Part shown: positions 15,948-24,525 of the stretch, piece by piece
Numbering within the stretch: the stretch's first letter is position 1
Layout of the letters: each line of letters starts with the position of its first letter
NCBI GenBank assembly: GCA_002733715.2
Contig: NVWQ02000055.1
Span: 1-64,000, forward strand
Reading direction: 5' to 3'
Source: Methylophaga sp.
Lineage (GTDB): Bacteria > Pseudomonadota > Gammaproteobacteria > Nitrosococcales > Methylophagaceae
DNA length: 64,000 nucleotides
Translations under genes and position numbers: made by a program
Notes under the pieces: generated by a model
The model's database searches: none
The model's input: the letters and a program-made list of their open reading frames with translations, nothing else
What the model was told of the DNA's origin: nothing

Positions 15948-15965
15948 AAATGGTGGCTATGGGTG
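15948..15965. repeat. Distal attachment site of the tRNA-Met island
   Basis: Copy of the last 15 bases of tRNA-Met plus three flanking A residues, identical to 24446-24463. It abuts the stop codon of the PAS-GGDEF-EAL gene. Before insertion the tRNA 3' end would have lain here, convergent with that gene. Confidence 0.88.
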
Positions 15966-16025
15966 CCTCCCAGTTTGCGCTGTAATCCCTTGTGGTTACT
16001 ATGTCGCAGGTTTTTACATTAAAAA

Positions 16026-16046
16026 GTTACCACCATAGTTACCATC
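16026..16046. promoter_or_regulatory. Putative integrase arm-binding sites, left end
   Basis: Two direct copies of GTTACCAYC at 16026 and 16038, twelve bases apart. Three more copies lie at the other end of the element, just upstream of the integrase start (24294-24335). Repeated short sites inside both ends fit arm-type binding of a lambda/P4-type integrase or of an excisionase. Confidence 0.6.
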
Positions 16047-16078
16047 AAAATAGCTTTACTGGAAACAGTATAACCCGA

Positions 16079-17275
16079 CTAAAGCACCCCAATAAAGTTA
16101 GGGAATAGCATATCATCGTCATTTATTGAAAGTAATCCCATTTCAATAAGTTGCTTCATATCCCTTCTTCGTGTTTTATCAGTTAGCTTACGATAAAGAG
16201 CCAAATACCAAATTGAGCGTTGCAATTCTTTTAAATTACTTGCTGTTCCTTTTCTCAGTATTTCATTAATAATTATGTATTGCCTGTCATTAATCTCTTT
16301 CTGATCATGTAATCGCTTTATCTGAGTTTCAAAAAGAACGACATTGACCATACCGTTTACCCGATCATGCAGGTTATTGATTGTTTCTAGCATTCCCTCA
16401 AGGAAAAAAGATACAAATTCTACGTTGGGGTAATCTCGCTTTTTATTTGAAGCCTTACGACAGAAGTTAAACAATGCAAAATAATGATCAATATGTTTCA
16501 AATAATAGGAGGCCTGAGCAAAAGGCGCATAACGAAAACCATCGGCATACAATATGCCAGCCTCTAAAACCCGACCTACACGCCCATTACCATCCCAAAA
16601 CGGATGGATAAGCTCAAAATATAAATGTACGAGTGGTGCGCGGATTAAGGCTGGCACACCCTGATCTGAAAGCACTACATTCCAAGATAATAATTCACTC
16701 AAAAGCAAACGAATATCTGCACCGTTTTGTGGTGGCTTATAAACTCCACCATGCGAGCTATTACCCACACTGGTCACTACTCCATCAGGATTATCTCTAA
16801 ATATACCTTGGTTCTGATCTTCACCCAACGCCTCGTAAATTCTATTATGGATTTCAACAACATCTTCTACAGTGGGATTCCAACTTTCAGCAACAGATAC
16901 TTCTTTAATATACTCATAGGCATTTTTAATATTCAAAGCGCGTTGCTGCTGAATATTCTGGATCTGCTCCGGTGACAATAACAAAGCTTGTTCAGTTTCA
17001 TCTTCGGATAACTCTCCACCCTCAATGGTATTTGTCCCAAAAACAGAGCTAACCACTACTTCTTTTTCCAATCGTGTCGCTACAGAAGCCAATGGAGAAA
17101 CACGGAAACGATCTTGAGCATCTTGAACCCGTCGAACTATAGTTTCTACCCCATCTCGACTTAATCCAAGCTGGAACTTGAATACACCAAACTGGTTAGT
17201 TTCAATACGCTTTATATTATTGTCGGTGTAAATGTCCATCAAAATGTCCTGAATATATTTTTTATATTCAATCAT
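16079..17275 (-). CDS. Fic domain protein (class II, self-inhibited type)
   Basis: 398 residues. The full Fic motif HPFWDGNGRVGR is at about residues 218-229, so the AMP-transferase site is intact. An inhibitory-helix motif TNTIEGG near residue 82, in front of the Fic core, marks a class II protein that blocks its own active site with a glutamate. The N-terminal domain and the C-terminal winged-helix-like region match the common 370-400-residue Fic family. It would AMPylate a target protein; the target is unknown. It is the outermost cargo gene of the tRNA-Met island and has an operator-like triple site upstream. Confidence 0.93.
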   Translation of the reverse strand: MIEYKKYIQDILMDIYTDNNIKRIETNQFGVFKFQLGLSRDGVETIVRRVQDAQDRFRVSPLASVATRLEKEVVVSSVFGTNTIEGGELSEDETEQALLLSPEQIQNIQQQRALNIKNAYEYIKEVSVAESWNPTVEDVVEIHNRIYEALGEDQNQGIFRDNPDGVVTSVGNSSHGGVYKPPQNGADIRLLLSELLSWNVVLSDQGVPALIRAPLVHLYFELIHPFWDGNGRVGRVLEAGILYADGFRYAPFAQASYYLKHIDHYFALFNFCRKASNKKRDYPNVEFVSFFLEGMLETINNLHDRVNGMVNVVLFETQIKRLHDQKEINDRQYIIINEILRKGTASNLKELQRSIWYLALYRKLTDKTRRRDMKQLIEMGLLSINDDDMLFPNFIGVL

Positions 17276-17322
17276 ATACAGGATGAAACATCAATAAATT
17301 GTCCATAAAAGCGTGTTTTCTC

Positions 17323-17375
17323 ATGTAAAGATAATTCAATTATCTATACATATGCTCCCCGTCATGTATAGATAA
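17323..17375. promoter_or_regulatory. Triple operator-like site upstream of fic
   Basis: Perfect 12-base inverted arms TTATCTATACAT (17340-17351) and ATGTATAGATAA (17364-17375) around a 12-base spacer; a third half-site, ATGTAAAGATAA, lies at 17323-17334. The cluster is 48-100 bp ahead of the fic start. Half-site spacing suits a dimeric repressor; Fic proteins often control themselves, but no regulator is proven here. Confidence 0.6.
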
Positions 17376-17986
17376 CCCACAAATCTAATCATGTTTTATC
17401 GAATGGTGTTTCTCTATTTAATTACTGAAACATAAAAATAACACTGTGAGGCGGTCACGGGATATGACGAATTCTTGATTATTTACCCGCCCTACCACTA
17501 GGTAACGGAAGTACAACCCCCTCAAAGATTTCTATATCTGGGAAAAACTCGCGAGTTGAAATGCCCGTACATCAACGCTGATTTACAGTACCTTTTATCT
17601 TTAATGGGTGACGGAACCCCTAGGCCATAAACAAACATAAACACATAGCTCTATCATGCAGGATTGATATGATTAAGGGATGACAATCGCGACACCGCGA
17701 CAGCTAAAAATAAAAAACACTGTTTTTGAAATACTTGCGTACCCCGTCGCGGTGTCGCGGTTATTGAGTAATTATTTAGGTGGATTGAAAGTAAGCAGAA
17801 TGACGTGCTACTTATTGCGGAAGTTTAATACCCGTTCTGAATAGTTCATTTAGTGGTAAGGGAATAAGAAAATAGCTGTTTAGCTATCTATAAATGTAGT
17901 CACCCCTTTAGATAAATCTAACTATATAAAGGGGTATCAAATTGTAGTGTTAAGGCTTGTTATATCAGGGGTTAGCTGTTATCCAC
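17376..17986. other. Gene-free stretch holding one 82-bp repeat and a hairpin
   Basis: About 610 bp without a convincing gene between fic and the next coding region. It holds the left copy of the 82-bp repeat (17684-17765) and an inverted repeat ACCCCTTTA/TAAAGGGGT (17902-17910 and 17927-17935). The absence of genes and the repeat make it a candidate replication or control region of the island. Confidence 0.5.
17684..17765. repeat. 82-bp palindromic repeat, copy A
   Basis: Identical over 82 bp to 18422-18503. Each copy carries GC-rich arms, CGCGACACCGCGAC near the left end and GTCGCGGTGTCGCG near the right, around an AT-rich centre with AAAAACACTGTTTTT. Each arm holds two CGCGAC-type units, like iterons. 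The GC-rich arms stand out from the AT-rich surroundings. Confidence 0.85.
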
Positions 17987-18391
17987 CTACTGTTCAATAT
18001 AGTCTCGTAGCCATGTATTAGCGTCCCGCCTTGCTTGCCCTGTTTGGCTGTTAACTTCAGCCCCAGCACTTTGTGCTGAATTGTACACTTGACTATATCT
18101 AAGCATAACGGGTTCACGTTTGGCAAGGGGTAATCTTAAAAGCATATCCACCAGCCATTGTTTATCACCCTCATGGTGTGCGTAACTTGCCACAATGTCA
18201 TGCACATCCTTAGGCTTGATCCGTTTTGGCTTAGATTGCTGCACTGGCTGTTTATCTTCACTGCTTGCCATAGGTTGAGAAGCATCAGTAACCACGTTCC
18301 CTTGCTGTTTAGCACTGAATAACCCGTCTAACCCACGATTAATATAGGCTTCATAGCTACCATAACCATCCCATTTTGCACTTGATCTCAT
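17987..18391 (-). CDS. Hypothetical protein of the tRNA-Met island
   Basis: 134 residues, soluble, no recognised family. The first 30 residues (opening MRSSAKWDGYGSYEAYI) and the last 75 look folded, joined by a polar linker rich in Q, S and K (residues 32-60). It lies between the two identical 82-bp repeats, downstream of the DUF3987 gene and on the same strand. A role in replication or its control is a guess from position. Confidence 0.6.
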   Translation of the reverse strand: MRSSAKWDGYGSYEAYINRGLDGLFSAKQQGNVVTDASQPMASSEDKQPVQQSKPKRIKPKDVHDIVASYAHHEGDKQWLVDMLLRLPLAKREPVMLRYSQVYNSAQSAGAEVNSQTGQARRDANTWLRDYIEQ

Positions 18392-18421
18392 GCTGTTACC
18401 TCATAAACCCTTGTTTTTACT

Positions 18422-18503
18422 CAATCGCGACACCGCGACAGCTAAAAATAAAAAACACTGTTTTTGAAATACTTGCGTACCCCGTCGCGGTGTCGCGGTT
18501 ATT
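18422..18503. repeat. 82-bp palindromic repeat, copy B
   Basis: Identical to 17684-17765. Its right edge overlaps the stop codon of the DUF3987 gene, and it lies 31 bp upstream of the start of the 134-residue hypothetical gene, so it also occupies that gene's leader. Confidence 0.85.
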
Positions 18504-20073
18504 TGCCCTCAATTTCAAATAATGACGGGTGAACACTATAAACAGCATTTCCTTTTGCTGTTTTTCCTGATTCTTTTAGCCATTGATACGGTGGCTCAGT
18601 CAGTACACCTATCACATCCACCAGCTCAGACCGGCTTAGTTTTGGCCTTGGGGCACTTCGTTGAATTTCACGGGCACCAATTTCGGTACAACCTTTTATC
18701 CTTAACCAATCAAGCAACCGCTTTGCATGTCGTAGGTGTTCGCCATCATCTGCCCCGCGTTGTGATCGTATCGCCTCTTTCATAAAAAACGATCCTAAGC
18801 GTTCTGCTTTTTGCCATGTAGCTATGTCTATCTTGCTGGTGGCCTCATTTAATAAATCGGGGTTATTAGCAAGATGAAGTATTAAAGCCAGCTTACAGGT
18901 TTGTGACGTGGCTTTAGAGGCAATGTCTCTCACATCATCCAACCCATTCCCATCTGCCATTGCTTTCTCAATATTGTTATAAAGCACTAATCTTGCCTTT
19001 TGTGCTTCGCTTGAAAAGGTCGCCTTATGCCGTATTAAATCGCCCTTATCATTCAAAGGCTGCACGGCATCAATAAAACGGGTCACACAATTATAAAACG
19101 GGGTTAGGGCTTCCCAGTCCAATCCTGCCTCGTCTAATTGCTCAAAGCGCGTGCCCACTAATGACGGCAACCAAACAGGCCATAATCGTGCAATTAATCC
19201 CGATGCTCTAAGCCCTTTATGCATAGCAACGCTTAAAAACATATCAGGCTGTATCATCAAGGTCATATTCAGGCTAGGTTTATACATCACCAGTTCTATA
19301 GCACCATCACCCGATCCAACACGGTCACGGCTAACCCTATCCCCCGAAAACCCTGATAAATACAACTTATCACCCGTTCCCGTTCCCCCTCGATTACTTC
19401 CCGTTAATGCTTCCATAATGTCGCGGCCTTCGGCTGACATAACGGCATAGGTTTCATCCCGCTCGTGCATTTTATGGAACAGAATTTCCGCGGTAATGTC
19501 AGAGGTATAAAGTGACGGTTCAACAGGTATGGCCTGTCTTTTCTTTTCAAGGTGATCTATCTGTTCATTAATCTCAGCTAGGTCAATATCGCTTTTATTG
19601 CCCTCATTTTTTATTTTCTTAATACGATCATCAATCATATCGTTATTATTAATTGCCTTTCTGACTTCGGCGGGATGATCTTTCTTTCGGGCTTGCTCCC
19701 AAGCATTCAAGGGTTTAGCCATATAACTAAATACAGGGCTTTTACGCTCTCCTGTTCCAGCTATCAATACAAAAAAGAATGTGGGATTAAGCTCATGACC
19801 GTCCCGCTCTACAATAATCGCCTTTTTACCCAAAGCCGTCGCCAGTACACCCAGCCCAGAGATAGCGGGTGCCATTGCCGGTACTTTGCTAAATCGCTCA
19901 ATCTCTCGGGCAGCCTGTTGTATGATGGGTGGCAAGCCATCAAACGGGAAGCCTTTAGCATCATCACTTGCCGTAATATCGGGCAATGGTTTAGGTGTAG
20001 GCCATAACTCTTCCACATTGTCCGCCTGTATCGGTTTCGCCTTGCTTACTGCTTTTTTAATATCGTCGCTCAT
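18499..20073 (-). CDS. DUF3987 family P-loop protein, replication module
   Basis: 524 residues matching DUF3987 proteins of phages and integrative elements. A Walker A-like motif, IAGTGERKSPVF, is at about residue 83-94. A stretch after about residue 190 (AEILFHKMHERDETYAVMSAEG) belongs to the conserved core, and a winged-helix-like tail (GAREIQRSAPRPKLSRSELV) ends the protein. In P4-like elements such proteins accompany a primase and probably act as helicase or loader; this is family knowledge, not shown. Its start overlaps the primase stop by four bases. Confidence 0.82.
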   Translation of the reverse strand: MSDDIKKAVSKAKPIQADNVEELWPTPKPLPDITASDDAKGFPFDGLPPIIQQAAREIERFSKVPAMAPAISGLGVLATALGKKAIIVERDGHELNPTFFFVLIAGTGERKSPVFSYMAKPLNAWEQARKKDHPAEVRKAINNNDMIDDRIKKIKNEGNKSDIDLAEINEQIDHLEKKRQAIPVEPSLYTSDITAEILFHKMHERDETYAVMSAEGRDIMEALTGSNRGGTGTGDKLYLSGFSGDRVSRDRVGSGDGAIELVMYKPSLNMTLMIQPDMFLSVAMHKGLRASGLIARLWPVWLPSLVGTRFEQLDEAGLDWEALTPFYNCVTRFIDAVQPLNDKGDLIRHKATFSSEAQKARLVLYNNIEKAMADGNGLDDVRDIASKATSQTCKLALILHLANNPDLLNEATSKIDIATWQKAERLGSFFMKEAIRSQRGADDGEHLRHAKRLLDWLRIKGCTEIGAREIQRSAPRPKLSRSELVDVIGVLTEPPYQWLKESGKTAKGNAVYSVHPSLFEIEGK

Positions 20074-21101
20074 GCTACTTTTTCCTGTTCGTTTAATACA
20101 TCAAGCCAATCGGTTCCCGCTTGTTCGGGGGTGATAATCTTTACCTCTCGCGTGCTATCTTCATCAATTAGCCTTTTTGCTACTGTGTTGGCTGCACGTT
20201 GGCCTACACCACTTAAATCATTATCGCTCCCAATGATTACCCGCTTTACACTTGAGGGAATAACGACCGATTCAAGACCACCAGCACTAATACATGCCCA
20301 TACTGGCTTATTTAATGAAATATGCAGGGCTAATGCTGTTTCTATTCCCTCCGCCACTATTAATTCATCAGTTGCAGGGTATAAGCGGATAGCCCCGCCT
20401 TTTGTTGCACCTTGCTTAATCGGTGGCATCATTTTCTTAACGGTGGGTAAATCAGCTTTATGGCCTGATTGGTTTAAGTAGGTGCGGTGATAGGTGATCG
20501 GTTTGCCCTCCTTGTTGCGTATAAGTGCCACCAATGCAGGAAAATTGCCGTACTCTTTGCCATCATGCCAATAAGATAAGGCAGGGTGAAAATGTAAATC
20601 ATCGGGTAATGACTTCAATACCTCACCTAATCCACGATTAATAAGGTAACTTCTAGCCGGTTGAGCAATCACATCATCTAAGCCCACCAGCTCGCATTTA
20701 ACGGCATTAAGTGCATTTTGCTTATATCGTATCGTTTTGGCCTCTTTTATGGGATCGGTGATCACTGGTGATCTTTTTACGATAGGTTTAGGCGTTTTGC
20801 TGGTGGTTGTAATACCAAGATAATCAGCAACAGCCTGTAAACTATCGGGCAATGTCCAGTGATTTATCCACGCTATTAGGGCAAAGCCATCAGGGTGCGC
20901 CCCACATGTGTTACAAATTCCACCGCCAGTGTCATCAGCATTACGATATAGCCTGAAGCCGTCCCTACCCCCATGAACAGGGCAAGGAACATGCTTTGGG
21001 TGCTTTTCGATAGCTTCAGATAATGACGGGGTAATATGGCTGAGTATATTTAACCAGTTACCTTGTGCGTGAGGGCGTACATCATCAAAATTGATTGTCA
21101 T
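20070..21101 (-). CDS. Zn-finger/Toprim primase of P4 type
   Basis: 343 residues. An N-terminal primase zinc ribbon has ligands in VPCPVHGGRDGFR (Cys40, His43) and CNTCG (Cys63, Cys66). The Toprim domain follows, with the acidic triad in LIVAEGIETALAL (Glu251) and IIGSDNDLSG (Asp293, Asp295). It should lay down primers for replication of the island. It is shorter than the P4 alpha protein because the helicase part is a separate gene here (DUF3987, overlapping by four bases). Confidence 0.88.
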   Translation of the reverse strand: MTINFDDVRPHAQGNWLNILSHITPSLSEAIEKHPKHVPCPVHGGRDGFRLYRNADDTGGGICNTCGAHPDGFALIAWINHWTLPDSLQAVADYLGITTTSKTPKPIVKRSPVITDPIKEAKTIRYKQNALNAVKCELVGLDDVIAQPARSYLINRGLGEVLKSLPDDLHFHPALSYWHDGKEYGNFPALVALIRNKEGKPITYHRTYLNQSGHKADLPTVKKMMPPIKQGATKGGAIRLYPATDELIVAEGIETALALHISLNKPVWACISAGGLESVVIPSSVKRVIIGSDNDLSGVGQRAANTVAKRLIDEDSTREVKIITPEQAGTDWLDVLNEQEKVA

Positions 21102-21115
21102 AGCTTCACCCCCCC

Positions 21116-21466
21116 CTATGCTACAAAATCAATATTTGCATCGGGTACGGTTACAGCTTCGGGCATGCCTAGCCGTCTTTCCGTTATAAATGAGCAGTCA
21201 TCCATATGAAAAATACGGCTTTCTTCTATTTCTCTGCCTTGTTCATCTAGCTCAACCTCCGTATAAATATGGTGACCTAAGGCAACCAGTGATCCAGCTA
21301 TAGGTAAAAGTGACCACATTGCAATTTGTGTATCTTTGAACTCTGTTACTCTTACTGCACCATCATCCTGCAAGGCTTCAAGTAGCACACTTTGTTCTGT
21401 CGTAAGGTTTTGAGCAATGAGCCCAGCCAATCTAATACGGTTGGTTTTCTTGATGTTTGGGTTCAT
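21116..21466 (-). CDS. Hypothetical protein between AlpA and primase
   Basis: 116 residues from MNPNIKKTNRIRLAGLIAQN; the ATG shares one base with the alpA stop codon (TAATG) and has AAGGAGGTG just upstream, which fixes the start. Soluble, with a short hydrophobic stretch (WSLLPIAGSLVALGHHIYTE). No family recognised. It sits in the control-replication operon, coupled to alpA and 14 bp from the primase. Confidence 0.7.
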   Translation of the reverse strand: MNPNIKKTNRIRLAGLIAQNLTTEQSVLLEALQDDGAVRVTEFKDTQIAMWSLLPIAGSLVALGHHIYTEVELDEQGREIEESRIFHMDDCSFITERRLGMPEAVTVPDANIDFVA

Positions 21467-21663
21467 TACGCCACCTCCTTGCGAGAGGCGGCTATTCTTT
21501 CTTCTAACCACTGGTCAATTTCAGACTTAAGCCAGCCGCTCGATCTTTCAGATAATTTTATAGGTGGTGGAAATTTACCATCTTGAACAAGGCGGTAAAC
21601 GCTAGAGCCGCTGAGAGAAACGGTATTTGTTACTTCTAATAACTTTAATATTTGTTCTGACAT
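21466..21663 (-). CDS. alpA: AlpA family excisionase/transcription regulator
   Basis: 65 residues with the AlpA winged-helix pattern: a helix-turn-helix SGSSVYRLVQDGKFPPPIKL followed by the WLKSEIDQWLEERI tail. AlpA-like proteins of P4-type elements activate the integrase or act as excision factors. It is the first gene of the minus-strand replication operon, with an imperfect palindrome directly upstream. Confidence 0.9.
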   Translation of the reverse strand: MSEQILKLLEVTNTVSLSGSSVYRLVQDGKFPPPIKLSERSSGWLKSEIDQWLEERIAASRKEVA

Positions 21664-21667
21664 ATCT

Positions 21668-21703
21668 TGTAGCCTCTTATTTTGTTTTATAGAGGCTTAC
21701 AAG
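21668..21703. promoter_or_regulatory. Imperfect palindrome upstream of alpA
   Basis: Arms TTGTAGCCTCT (left) and AGAGGCTTACAA (right, ending at 21702) pair except for one extra base, around a 14-base AT-rich spacer. The position immediately before the alpA start fits an operator for AlpA or another island regulator. Confidence 0.5.
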
Positions 21704-21750
21704 GTATATGATGATTACAGTGGTTTATGCCATGAAAAATACACCATTAA

Positions 21751-22419
21751 TCACACATTATTTTTTTCACTATATCCTCTGATATCTTCAATTGTCAGAT
21801 CAATTCTATCAAGCCATGTACCGAGAGATGAGTTAGGTGGCACACCATATTCATCAAATATTTCAACTAGACCAGTCGCAACTTCCATAGGTGTACCCAT
21901 ACTGGTGCTAATTGGTGGTCTAGCTTTCATTTTCTTGCCGTCATCTTGGATAAGGCTTTCAAAAGTTGAAGCCCATATAGTCGAAAAATTATCGCCCTGT
22001 ATTTCCGCCTTAATTTGGATCAAATAATTAAGCACAGAATCGTCTTTCCCTGGCCTTCCCTTCCTATGTTTCTTTTCGCGAATTAATTTTTCAGCATCAA
22101 GAAGGAGTTGATGATGTATTAACATATCGCTGGATATCATAACGTCAAGAAGTCCATCTGCCAGTTTTGCGCTGCCAGTAATAACAGCCCCAAGTAAGGC
22201 CTCATTGTATTTGTCTGTAAAAGTTTTAAACCCGTCACAGTTATCTTTTTCTTCTTTACTTAATACTATCGAAAATAATTCATCCCTCTCATTGTCTGTT
22301 AAAAGGTGTAAGGCATATTGTCTTTCTTGGTATGGTTTTGCAGAAAGAAAACAGTCTTTCTTTGCCTTTTCAAGTGAAACTAACCATGCAGCTATTTTTT
22401 TCTCCACTACGGCCTCCAT
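21751..22419 (-). CDS. Hypothetical protein, tRNA-Met island
   Basis: 222 residues, soluble, helical and charged, no membrane segment. It contains a basic patch, KHRKGRPGKDD, near residue 138 and ends in an acidic region. I do not recognise the family. It is preceded by the short RadC gene on the same strand (29 bp gap) and followed by the alpA operator region. Confidence 0.65.
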   Translation of the reverse strand: MEAVVEKKIAAWLVSLEKAKKDCFLSAKPYQERQYALHLLTDNERDELFSIVLSKEEKDNCDGFKTFTDKYNEALLGAVITGSAKLADGLLDVMISSDMLIHHQLLLDAEKLIREKKHRKGRPGKDDSVLNYLIQIKAEIQGDNFSTIWASTFESLIQDDGKKMKARPPISTSMGTPMEVATGLVEIFDEYGVPPNSSLGTWLDRIDLTIEDIRGYSEKNNV

Positions 22420-22447
22420 TAAACTAGACTTACCATTAACTTCTTAC

Positions 22448-22972
22448 TTATATTAGCCCATGTTTAGAAAAACTATAAGCACTCCCTCCACCCACAATAA
22501 TATGATCAAGCACTCCAATATCCACAACGCCCAAAGCATGCTGCAATCTGCTTGTAATGCTTTTATCCGCTTGGCTTGGCTCAGTAAAGCCAGAAGGATG
22601 ATTATGTGCAAATATAACAGCGGCAGCATTTAGCTGCAATGCACGCTTAACAACCTCGCGCGGATAAACATTAGCACCATCAATAGTTCCTCTAAACAAT
22701 TCCTCAAAAGCAATTAAGCGGTGCTGATTATCGAGAAACAAACAAGAAAACACTTCATGCTCGCGATTTGAAAAATGGGTTATTAGATAGTCTTTTGCTA
22801 CACAAGCATCCTCAAACACATCAACGCGATTTAGCTTGTTAGCCAAGATTGCTTTAGCTGCTTTTATTATTTGCAAATCCGTTAAGCTACGCCTTGCCAT
22901 ATATCGCCCACTTGCTTCATGAATCTTGAAGTGTGGTACTTTTAAAGTAGTGGTATTATTACTTATAGTCAT
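22448..22972 (-). CDS. Short RadC-like JAB domain protein
   Basis: 174 residues, shorter than chromosomal RadC (about 224) because the N-terminal helix-hairpin-helix region is mostly missing. The JAMM metal motif is complete: His123 and His125 in FAHNHPSGF, Asp136 in PSQADKS. Such mobile-element RadC proteins (YeeS-like) are common in islands; the biochemical role is unsettled. It lies two genes upstream of alpA and downstream of the integrase. Confidence 0.88.
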   Translation of the reverse strand: MTISNNTTTLKVPHFKIHEASGRYMARRSLTDLQIIKAAKAILANKLNRVDVFEDACVAKDYLITHFSNREHEVFSCLFLDNQHRLIAFEELFRGTIDGANVYPREVVKRALQLNAAAVIFAHNHPSGFTEPSQADKSITSRLQHALGVVDIGVLDHIIVGGGSAYSFSKHGLI

Positions 22973-23074
22973 TATTAAAGCTCCTTGTTAGCTTTGGTTT
23001 TGATTAGTCGAGGCTGGTGTGTCACCATCAGCCTCGATGTTAACTTTTCTTTTTCAAGAAAAAAATGGATTGAT

Positions 23075-24292
23075 CTATCCATTTCTACCTTGTCGATTAA
23101 GTGGTACCACATCAGCACCACCAGCCAAACCATCAAGATAATCCGCCCACGCTTGCATCATCTTTTTACGCTCTGGCATATGTTGCGCGTGGTTATAAGC
23201 GGCTCTTACTGAGTTACCTTCCACATGGGCTAATTGCTTTTCTATCCAGTCAGAATTATAGCCTTGCTCGTTTAGCATGGTTGAAGCCATGCCTCTAAAA
23301 CCGTGTGTTGTAATTTCGCCTTTGCCATAACCCAAACGACGAAGAGCCGATCTTAATGTATCAATACTCATAGGCTTTTTATCTGAACGATTGCTAGGGA
23401 ATACATATTCACCTGTTCCCGTTAAAGGATGAATACCTTTTAGAATAACCAAGGCTTGTTTTGATAGTGGCACAATATGCTGCTGGTCACCTTTCATGTT
23501 TTCTACTGGTATGCGCCATTCTGCTTTATCTAAATCAATATGTTCCCATTTTGCTTGTGCGATATTGGCAGGGCGTGACATAACGTAAGGTGCAAGTCTC
23601 AATGCACAGCACACAACATACGTACCCTTATAGCTGTTTATGTCTCGCATCAATTTACCCACAGCACGGGGATCGGTAAGCGTTGCGTAATGTTTTGTCT
23701 TAGCGGGTGGTAATGCTCCGATAAGTGCATCAGCGGGGTTGCTGGTGGCTTTGCCTATTGCAATGGCATACCGATATATTTGACTGGTTATCTGCCTAAG
23801 TTTGTGAGCTGTATATAACGTGCCCCTGCTTTCAGTTCGTCGTAACACGGCTAATAAACCTTGAGGGGTAATCGTATTGATAGGTTCATCACCTAGCCAG
23901 CGGATTAAATTGGCGTTGATTCTGCCAAAGGTGCGTTCAGCATAACTTTTTGACCAGCTTGGGGAATGTTTTTTGTGCCACTCTAGTGCTATTTCGCCAA
24001 AGGTCTCACCTAAAGCATTAACCGCCTTTTCCGTTTTACGCTCAATAGCTGGATCTACCCCATCAAATACCTGTGCCCTAATTTCATCACGCTTTATTGT
24101 CGCGGCTTTTAAAGTTACATCAGGATAGGTTCCTACTGACAATTCTTTCTGCTTACCGCCAAATCTATAGCGCACTCTCCACCACTTACCACCATTTGGC
24201 GCAATTATTAGGTACAAACCAAGCCCAGCGGCCAGTTTATACTGCTTCTCTTGCGGTTGTGCATTTCGGATCTGAATATCTGTTAAAGCCAT
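23075..24292 (-). CDS. Tyrosine integrase of the tRNA-Met island (P4 type)
   Basis: 405 residues from MALTDIQIRNAQPQEKQYKL; in-frame GTG codons extend the frame to 24334, but the P4-integrase N-terminus starts at this ATG. An arm-binding DUF4102 domain is followed by the core-binding and catalytic domains; catalytic residues are seen in APYVMSRPANIAQAKW (Arg), THGFRGMAST (HxxR) and the LAHVEGNSVRAAYNH region with the tyrosine nucleophile. It reads away from the tRNA, as usual for this family, and should catalyse integration at tRNA-Met. Confidence 0.93.
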   Translation of the reverse strand: MALTDIQIRNAQPQEKQYKLAAGLGLYLIIAPNGGKWWRVRYRFGGKQKELSVGTYPDVTLKAATIKRDEIRAQVFDGVDPAIERKTEKAVNALGETFGEIALEWHKKHSPSWSKSYAERTFGRINANLIRWLGDEPINTITPQGLLAVLRRTESRGTLYTAHKLRQITSQIYRYAIAIGKATSNPADALIGALPPAKTKHYATLTDPRAVGKLMRDINSYKGTYVVCCALRLAPYVMSRPANIAQAKWEHIDLDKAEWRIPVENMKGDQQHIVPLSKQALVILKGIHPLTGTGEYVFPSNRSDKKPMSIDTLRSALRRLGYGKGEITTHGFRGMASTMLNEQGYNSDWIEKQLAHVEGNSVRAAYNHAQHMPERKKMMQAWADYLDGLAGGADVVPLNRQGRNG

Positions 24293-24293
24293 T

Positions 24294-24335
24294 GTTACCA
24301 CCACCCCTTTGATAGTTACCATCAAAGTTACCACT
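24294..24335. promoter_or_regulatory. Putative integrase arm-binding sites, right end
   Basis: Three copies of GTTACCAYY at 24294, 24315 and 24327, matching the two at 16026 and 16038. They lie over the integrase leader, so binding could both assemble the recombination complex and repress the integrase gene. Confidence 0.6.
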
Positions 24336-24445
24336 AGAATAGGTGGGAAGTCTAGCTATTTCACAAGACAGCATGGGACAAGATAAAGCCTTAAAGCCTT
24401 ATTTTATGCGGGTTTTGGGATGATTTTGGAGGGTGTGGGAAGTTG

Positions 24446-24463
24446 AAATGGTGGCTATGGGTG
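24446..24463. repeat. tRNA-proximal attachment site of the tRNA-Met island
   Basis: Identical to 15948-15965; covers the 3' terminal 15 bases of tRNA-Met and three bases beyond. The integrase lies next to it, on the island side. Confidence 0.88.
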
Positions 24464-24525
24464 GATTCGAACCACCGACCCCATCATTATGAGTGATGTG
24501 CTCTAACCAACTGAGCTACATAGCC
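24449..24525 (-). tRNA. tRNA-Met (CAT), elongator type
   Basis: 77 bases including an encoded CCA. Acceptor GGCTATG pairs with CATAGCC; D stem GCTC/GAGC; anticodon stem CATCA/TGATG with loop CTCATAA, anticodon CAT; T arm with GGTTCGAATCC. The body follows the E. coli elongator tRNA-Met closely. Its 3' end is the attachment site of the island on its left. Confidence 0.96.

What the first reader, a model, noticed from the sequence alone, without database searches (positions are those of the whole stretch)
17684..18503. Two identical 82-bp palindromic repeats in the tRNA-Met island
17684-17765 and 18422-18503 match at all 82 positions, while a 134-codon gene lies between. Each has GC-rich inverted arms made of CGCGACA-like units and an AT-rich centre. 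Perfect identity in non-coding DNA suggests selection or recent copying. They may be replication origins recognised by the primase/ATPase module, or twin regulatory sites.
Basis: partly seen in the sequence, partly recalled or inferred. Interest (0 to 1): 0.65.

Follow-up and report, generated by a model that had tools for sequence, protein, structure and literature searches.

The report
Twin replication origins in satellite-like island
The two identical 82-bp repeats look like two copies of the replication start site of a small mobile island, each placed where its own helicase would bind; this is a familiar kind of site, here duplicated on both sides of a small gene.

Summary
In detail: 82/82 identity, 738 bp apart, only two copies in the genome. 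Each copy is a unit of two direct ~8-bp iterons (CGCGACA-N), a 33-bp AT-rich spacer and two inverted iterons. The proximal copy overlaps the stop codon of the DUF3987 (YfjI-type) helicase gene; the other lies past a 134-aa gene. The island (15948-24463) ends in a tRNA-Met gene and carries integrase, AlpA, Toprim primase and DUF3987. Two related islands have one unit in the same place: iterons conserved 23/24 and 14/15, spacer not. In Pseudomonadota an equivalent unit, with other iterons, follows 29 of 60 DUF3987 genes but 4 of 460 other ORFs. Phage P4 crr (twin 120-bp repeats 3' of alpha) and an E. coli PICI origin region have a like layout. Best reading: duplicated origin units bound by the winged-helix C-terminus of DUF3987; a new variant of a known kind. 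Origin activity is inferred, not shown. Whether the second copy works is open: most surveyed elements have one unit, but an unrelated element keeps a second one about 1 kb away. The 100% identity needs no special explanation.

The parts
17684..17765 (-). distal origin unit (copy 1): iteron pair 17688-17702, AT-rich spacer 17703-17735, conserved 24-mer with the facing iteron pair 17736-17759
   Evidence: sub-coordinates read from the sequence
18422..18503 (-). proximal origin unit (copy 2), overlapping the DUF3987 stop codon: iterons 18426-18440, AT-rich spacer 18441-18473, 24-mer with facing iterons 18474-18497
   Evidence: single homologous unit at the same place in L007 and L008
18499..20073 (-). 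DUF3987 (YfjI-type) putative initiator helicase, 524 aa, C-terminal winged helix predicted
   Evidence: PF13148 E=5.9e-63, phrog_2373 DNA helicase, C-terminal model pLDDT 77
20070..21101 (-). Zn-ribbon/Toprim primase, 343 aa
   Evidence: PF08273, PF13362, DUF7146
17987..18391 (-). 134-aa gene of unknown function (phrog_852) between the two units; a homologue follows the single unit in L008 (as L005) and a similar ORF in L007
21466..21663 (-). AlpA regulator
   Evidence: PF05930
23075..24334 (-). tyrosine integrase
15948..15965 (.). att direct repeat, island end
   Evidence: 18-bp repeat AAATGGTGGCTATGGGTG
24446..24463 (.). att direct repeat at the 3' end of tRNA-Met (24449-24525)
16079..17275 (-). 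Fic protein (SoFic-like), cargo

Best explanation
The two repeats are two copies of the origin unit of a P4/PICI-like integrative island. Shown: anatomy, position, conservation and recurrence in relatives. Inferred: after excision, the DUF3987 protein binds the inward-facing iteron pairs through its C-terminal winged helix (probably as two oligomers facing each other), melts the AT-rich spacer, and unwinds the DNA for the neighbouring Toprim primase. The proximal unit, at the end of the initiator gene, is the ancestral site. The distal unit is a duplicate that also took the last bases of the gene, and may act as a second origin or as a P4-crr-like helper site.
For: Unit lies directly 3' of DUF3987 in the window, L006, L007 and L008. 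Against L007/L008 (65-67% aa identity) the left iterons plus 10 bp are conserved 23/24, the right ones 14/15, the spacer 17-18 of 35 alignment columns; spacer GC 21% vs island 42%. Strict four-iteron unit 3' of DUF3987 in Gammaproteobacteria: 20 of 31 at shuffle p<=0.01, vs 1 of 31 inside the gene and 3 of 29 at +600-900 (two of the three are the second copies of window and L006); an inverted-repeat score gave 20 of 31 vs 1 of 31 and 4 of 29. Second sample: 12 of 29, vs 0 of 29 and 1 of 27. Score >=25: 29 of 60 DUF3987 ends vs 4 of 460 other ORF ends. Iterons differ between elements, and their similarity follows DUF3987 similarity, more for the winged helix (partial r 0.30, p 0.0005) than for the core (0.17, p 0.024), n=27. 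Second units: L041/L093 at +1014 bp (iterons 30/32 alike, spacer 13/22, 100-bp flanks 35 and 34 of 100), L044 at +132, L016 161 bp apart. P4 crr: twin 120-bp repeats (82% identical) 3' of alpha, with type-1 iterons inverted around ~45 bp. E. coli CFT073 PICI: two such units 3' of pri. Origin function of that PICI's rep-ori: PMC6092414 passages.
Against: No replication, excision or binding data. 28 of the 60 surveyed DUF3987 genes gave no unit at p<=0.01 (some have broken or misjudged ends, some have direct arrays only). The strict test also misses the known P4 crr (p 0.12) and is weak on the CFT073 PICI origin (p 0.04); K-12 yfjI reaches only p 0.05. A looser 8-mer count did not separate real from control regions. 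L007 and L008 manage with one unit, as do most surveyed elements, so the second copy may be inert. Iteron-protein co-variation is partly shared ancestry, since the core correlates too.
Confidence: 0.82

Rival explanations
1. Only the proximal unit is an origin; the distal one is an inert or transient duplicate kept identical by recency or gene conversion. (A narrower form of the best explanation, so the two confidences overlap.)
For: L007/L008 have one unit. The 82/82 identity is no better than expected given ~99% identity of the whole block between window and L006. Copy 1 keeps 5 bp that belong to the end of DUF3987.
Against: Both copies are kept in two assemblies whose DUF3987 body DNA is only 66-79% identical. 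An unrelated element (L041/L093) keeps a second unit 1 kb away with iterons 30/32 alike against 13/22 in the spacer.
Confidence: 0.4
2. Twin regulatory sites (operators for AlpA or another regulator) rather than origins.
For: Inverted repeats often bind dimeric regulators (general knowledge).
Against: No iteron pair near alpA or int; unit position follows the DUF3987 gene in many elements with different iterons; promoter-like sites in 17200-18700 are below the shuffle mean (2 vs 4.6).
Confidence: 0.07
3. Transcription terminator, REP/MITE-like or other genomic repeat.
For: GC-rich hairpin, single-strand DNA fold z -4.3.
Against: Two copies in the genome; no terminator-like site found in 17200-18700; 44-nt centre and direct iterons are unlike a terminator; no target-site duplication seen by eye in the flanks.
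Confidence: 0.04
4. Packaging (cos/pac) site or partition site of a phage satellite.
For: The island has satellite-type genes; conserved non-coding DNA lies next to copy 1.
Against: No convincing phage relative of the neighbouring non-coding block was found. No par or terminase gene was named among the nine island ORFs scanned. The position rule is tied to DUF3987.
Confidence: 0.04

Closest known systems
Phage P4 crr (cis required region for replication)
   Same: twin direct repeats just 3' of the primase-helicase gene; 8-bp iterons facing each other across a ~45-bp centre
   Different: P4 repeats are 120 bp, 82% identical and 60 bp apart; alpha is one fused protein with D5_N/DUF5906 domains; P4 also has a separate annotated ori with more iterons. 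Here the repeats are 82 bp, 100% identical, with a gene between, and the helicase is DUF3987
PICI/SaPI replication origins (E. coli CFT073 PICI, SaPI Rep-ori)
   Same: directly 3' of the initiator gene; two iteron sets flanking an AT-rich region (PMC6092414 passages; PMC7581432 passages)
   Different: initiator families DUF5906/Pox_D5, DUF927 or D5-like there, DUF3987 here; different iterons
PICMI satellites of Vibrionaceae
   Same: integrase, AlpA, and a primase defined by DUF3987/DUF5906 models (PMC10803314 passages)
   Different: inserted by fis, not a tRNA gene; the word iteron does not occur in that paper's main text
DUF3987/YfjI predicted helicases of mobile elements
   Same: predicted helicase, in primase fusions with a winged helix (PMC5862659 passages)
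   Different: no origin was assigned to DUF3987 in the passages read

Membership tests
PICI/SaPI-type replication origin | lies directly 3' of the initiator helicase gene | tested here: met
   copy 2 overlaps the DUF3987 stop codon; same place in L006, L007, L008. That DUF3987 is the initiator is inferred
PICI/SaPI-type replication origin | two iteron sets flanking an AT-rich region | tested here: met
   2+2 inverted iterons, 33-bp spacer at 21% GC vs 42% for the island
PICI/SaPI-type replication origin | initiator binds the iterons and the segment drives autonomous replication | not testable with these tools
   needs binding and plasmid assays
P4 crr | twin direct repeats carrying inverted iterons next to the helicase gene | tested here: met
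P4 crr | repeats adjacent (60 bp apart) and next to a fused alpha primase-helicase | tested here: not met
   656 bp with a gene between; primase and DUF3987 are separate genes
P4 crr | a further, separate ori elsewhere with the same iterons | tested here: not met
   no other iteron pair within 3 mismatches in the island
PICI/PICMI phage satellite | integrase, AlpA and replication genes between att repeats | tested here: met
PICI/PICMI phage satellite | induced and packaged by a helper phage | not testable with these tools
   no helper known; no packaging gene named in the nine island ORFs scanned
REP/MITE genomic repeat | dispersed multi-copy repeat | tested here: not met
   two copies in the genome

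The most novel reading that the evidence does not exclude
DUF3987/YfjI proteins are a general family of self-loading origin-binding helicases that carry their own cognate origin directly behind the gene, with an iteron code read by the C-terminal winged helix. In the window's lineage, and independently elsewhere, this origin has been duplicated around cargo genes to give a two-site (ori plus crr-like) replicon.
Probability: 0.5. Interest if true: 0.6.

Novelty: new variant of a known kind. Interest (0 to 1): 0.45.

Why it matters
DUF3987 is still named 'protein of unknown function' in Pfam, though it sits in many islands, plasmids and satellites. A position rule for its origin would let one find origins and match initiators with iterons from sequence alone, define island boundaries and replicons, and test whether two-site origins such as P4 crr arose repeatedly.

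Tried and rejected
Cos-site idea for the conserved non-coding block 17489-17640: blastn against phages gave only 24-base matches (E 0.9), and the 16-mer hits in two viral contigs share nothing around it; dropped. Viral contigs: no confirmed relative of the 134-aa protein or of DUF3987 from the peptide patterns used, and no hit of the exact iteron pattern. Plasmids: no DNA match; DUF3987 relatives in 33 records, 21-28% identity in the 30 rows shown. Phages: 7 records at 24-26%. None of these plasmid or phage records was examined for iterons. Loose 8-mer counting was uninformative: 29 of 31 test and 26 of 31 control regions passed, so the four-iteron test replaced it. The full-length DUF3987 model was poor (pLDDT 43.7) and not used; the C-terminal domain alone gave a winged helix (pLDDT 77, pTM 0.59, four sequences) with unspecific winged-helix matches (Foldseek best E 7e-3; VIA-align Z 7.3-8.7 in the 50 rows shown). 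No SaPI Rep match appears in the rows shown, which excludes nothing. A profile of eight DUF3987 proteins found no convincing solved homologue (best E 0.15). E. coli K-12 yfjI has no evident iteron unit 3' of it by eye (p 0.05). Papers: YfjI+iterons 0, DUF3987+iteron 0, DUF3987+satellite+helicase 0; DUF3987+origin of replication 2 (passages read). Also seen as passages: PMC7145576 (PLE origin), PMC9942202 and PMC8628076, of little bearing. This library lacks most subscription papers.

Rows dropped before the counts. First sample (31 rows: window, L006-L008, L010 and 26 loci): left out were L014, L015, L029, L040 (fragments or no clean gene end), L001-L005, L011-L013, L017 and L030 (duplicates) and three places without loci. 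Second sample: only the 29 newly fetched loci L051-L079, of 52 places listed. Gene ends were set mechanically as the longest open frame, and in L023, L028, L031 and L035 the end looks wrong; these rows were kept as misses. One search used 27 of the 32 elements with a unit (left out: L006 and L008 as near-duplicates, L072-L074 as weak units). In one search, 9 of 32 elements passed p<=0.02 for more iterons within 1.4 kb (L006, window, L020, L033, L041, L044, L057, L058, L061), with a threshold of 24 of 28 over the longer stretch, only window, L016, L041, L044 (and L079 weakly, in the opposite order) show a separate second unit. The L006 row landed on the window sequence, so its twin rests.

Full report
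OBSERVATION. Positions 17684-17765 and 18422-18503 are identical over 82 bases, 738 bp apart, and no further copy was found in the 2.83-Mb genome. A second Methylophaga assembly (L006, record JALSLH010000059.1) holds the same pair 739 bp apart. Its distal copy equals the window's copy 1 (82/82) and its proximal copy differs from the window's copy 2 at one base.

SURROUNDINGS. The repeats lie in an 8.5-kb island bounded by an 18-bp direct repeat, AAATGGTGGCTATGGGTG, at 15948 and 24446, the second copy covering the 3' end of a tRNA-Met gene. Genes read leftward: integrase, RadC, a 222-aa protein, AlpA, a 131-aa protein, a Zn-ribbon/Toprim primase, DUF3987, a 134-aa protein (phrog_852) and a Fic protein. 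The nearest named relatives are Methylophaga MAGs, so the host is taken to be a Methylophaga-type gammaproteobacterium.

ANATOMY. On the gene strand each repeat reads AATAAC, then CGCGACAC CGCGACGG GGTACGCA, a 33-bp AT-rich spacer, then TGTCGCGG TGTCGCG and ATTG. So two direct ~8-bp iterons face two inverted ones across an AT-rich stretch (21% GC against 42% for the island). The DUF3987 stop codon lies within the proximal copy. Copy 1 keeps the same five bases although no gene ends there, which suggests, weakly, that the proximal copy was the source.

RELATIVES. L007 and L008, islands next to tRNA-Cys genes with DUF3987 at 67% and 65% identity, each have one such unit at the same place. Compared with the window, the left iterons with the adjoining 10 bp agree at 23/24 and the right iterons at 14/15, whereas the spacer agrees at 18 and 17 of 35 alignment columns. 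Between window and L006 the block 17700-18700 (both units, the 134-aa gene and the last ~65 codons of DUF3987) is 98-99.5% identical per 200-bp bin, while most of the DUF3987 body is 66-79%. The winged-helix end of the helicase and the units thus appear to have moved together. This high local identity also means that 82/82 between the copies needs no special selection. Only five of 57 genomes of the family have a DUF3987 relative at E<=1e-6, the window's own included; one of these, G424, has two fragments only.

SURVEY. DUF3987 helicases (phrog_2373) were sought in 369 gammaproteobacterial genomes (29 with a match) and 398 genomes of the phylum (45 with a match). In the 300 bp behind the gene I scored the best set of two direct 7-mers (period 8-10) facing two inverted ones. 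First sample (31 loci, four of them the window's own clade): 20 of 31 reach shuffle p<=0.01, against 1 of 31 inside the gene and 3 of 29 at +600-900, two of which are the second copies of window and L006. Without the four clade members this is 16 of 27 against 1 of 27 and 1 of 25. Second sample: 12 of 29 against 0 of 29 and 1 of 27. With a fixed score of 25 or more of 28, 29 of 60 DUF3987 ends pass but only 4 of 460 ends of other ORFs of at least 150 aa in 41 longer stretches (40 fetched loci and the window; ORFs within 1.5 kb of a DUF3987 end left out). The loci are not all independent by descent, so the Fisher p of 1e-26 overstates. The test is conservative: it misses P4 crr (p 0.12) and is weak for the CFT073 PICI (p 0.04).

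DIFFERENT ITERONS, SAME PLACE. The iterons differ between elements (for example CGCACAAT, GCTATTCC, CTGACAAAA, CGCTACAAA). Their similarity follows DUF3987 similarity: Mantel r 0.395 with the winged helix and 0.313 with the core; partial 0.302 (p 0.0005) and 0.170 (p 0.024), n=27. This fits a cognate initiator-origin pair but is partly shared ancestry. The C-terminal 89 residues are predicted as a winged helix (H-E-H-H-E-E, pLDDT 77), with winged-helix domains among the best structural matches.

TWIN UNITS. Of 32 elements with a unit, five have a separate second one with the same iterons: window and L006 (738/739 bp), L041/L093 (1014 bp), L016 (161 bp) and L044 (132 bp); a weak sixth candidate is L079, and several others have extended iteron arrays. 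Short contigs mean that more could be missed. In L093 the first unit lies inside the ORF behind DUF3987 and the second about 1 kb further, past that ORF and another. The two units agree at 30/32 iteron bases, 13/22 spacer bases, and 35 and 34 of 100 bases in the flanks, although the 20 bases to the right agree at 13/20. This argues, without proving it, that second copies can be kept for their iterons. Phage P4 crr, annotated as two 120-bp direct repeats directly 3' of alpha, with type-1 iterons inverted around ~45 bp, is the closest known twin. The region 3' of the primase gene in the CFT073 island also shows two units (arms around 47 and 43 nt); I take this island to be EcCICFT073 from its gene content, without having seen the paper's coordinates.

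MECHANISM. From published work, seen as passages: SaPI Rep recognises with its C-terminal domain an iteron origin directly downstream of its gene (PMC7581432); Gram-negative PICI origins lie 3' of the initiator with two iteron sets flanking an AT-rich region, and rep-ori drives plasmid maintenance (PMC6092414); DUF3987 was predicted to be a helicase of mobile elements (PMC5862659). By analogy the DUF3987 protein binds the facing iterons, opens the spacer and loads itself, and the Toprim primase primes. Every step of this for the window is inference. Whether the distal unit is a second origin, a crr-like helper or an inert copy is open.

NOVELTY. The site is of a known kind. What I did not find in print is an origin assigned to DUF3987/YfjI; twin identical units around a gene were not searched for as such. 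The library lacks most subscription papers.

Noticed in passing
17489-17640: Non-coding block between copy 1 and the Fic gene is nearly identical to L006 while adjacent DNA is less so; function unknown, the cos idea was not supported.
   Followed up: partly
17340-17375: Inverted repeat TTATCTATACAT/ATGTATAGATAA upstream of the Fic gene start, a candidate operator.
   Followed up: no
16079-17275: Fic protein (SoFic-like) is mosaic: its N-terminal part is about 97% identical to L006, the C-terminal part 73-80% at the DNA level.
   Followed up: no
L018, L019, L026, L027, L041, L044 (3' of DUF3987): The iterons seem to lie inside the 5' end of the next ORF, which starts at or over the DUF3987 stop codon, so the origin appears embedded in coding sequence (read by eye; ORF lists only for L041 and L044).
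   Followed up: partly
L022, L024, L055, L058, L061: Iterons of the TGTCGC/GCGACA type recur in several distant DUF3987 elements, resembling the window's CGCGACA; L024 has two direct TGTCGCAAC arrays 3' of the gene that the strict test misses.
   Followed up: no
L006 2809-3839: The L006 primase gene appears split into two frames (140 and 205 aa) where the window has one 343-aa ORF.
   Followed up: no
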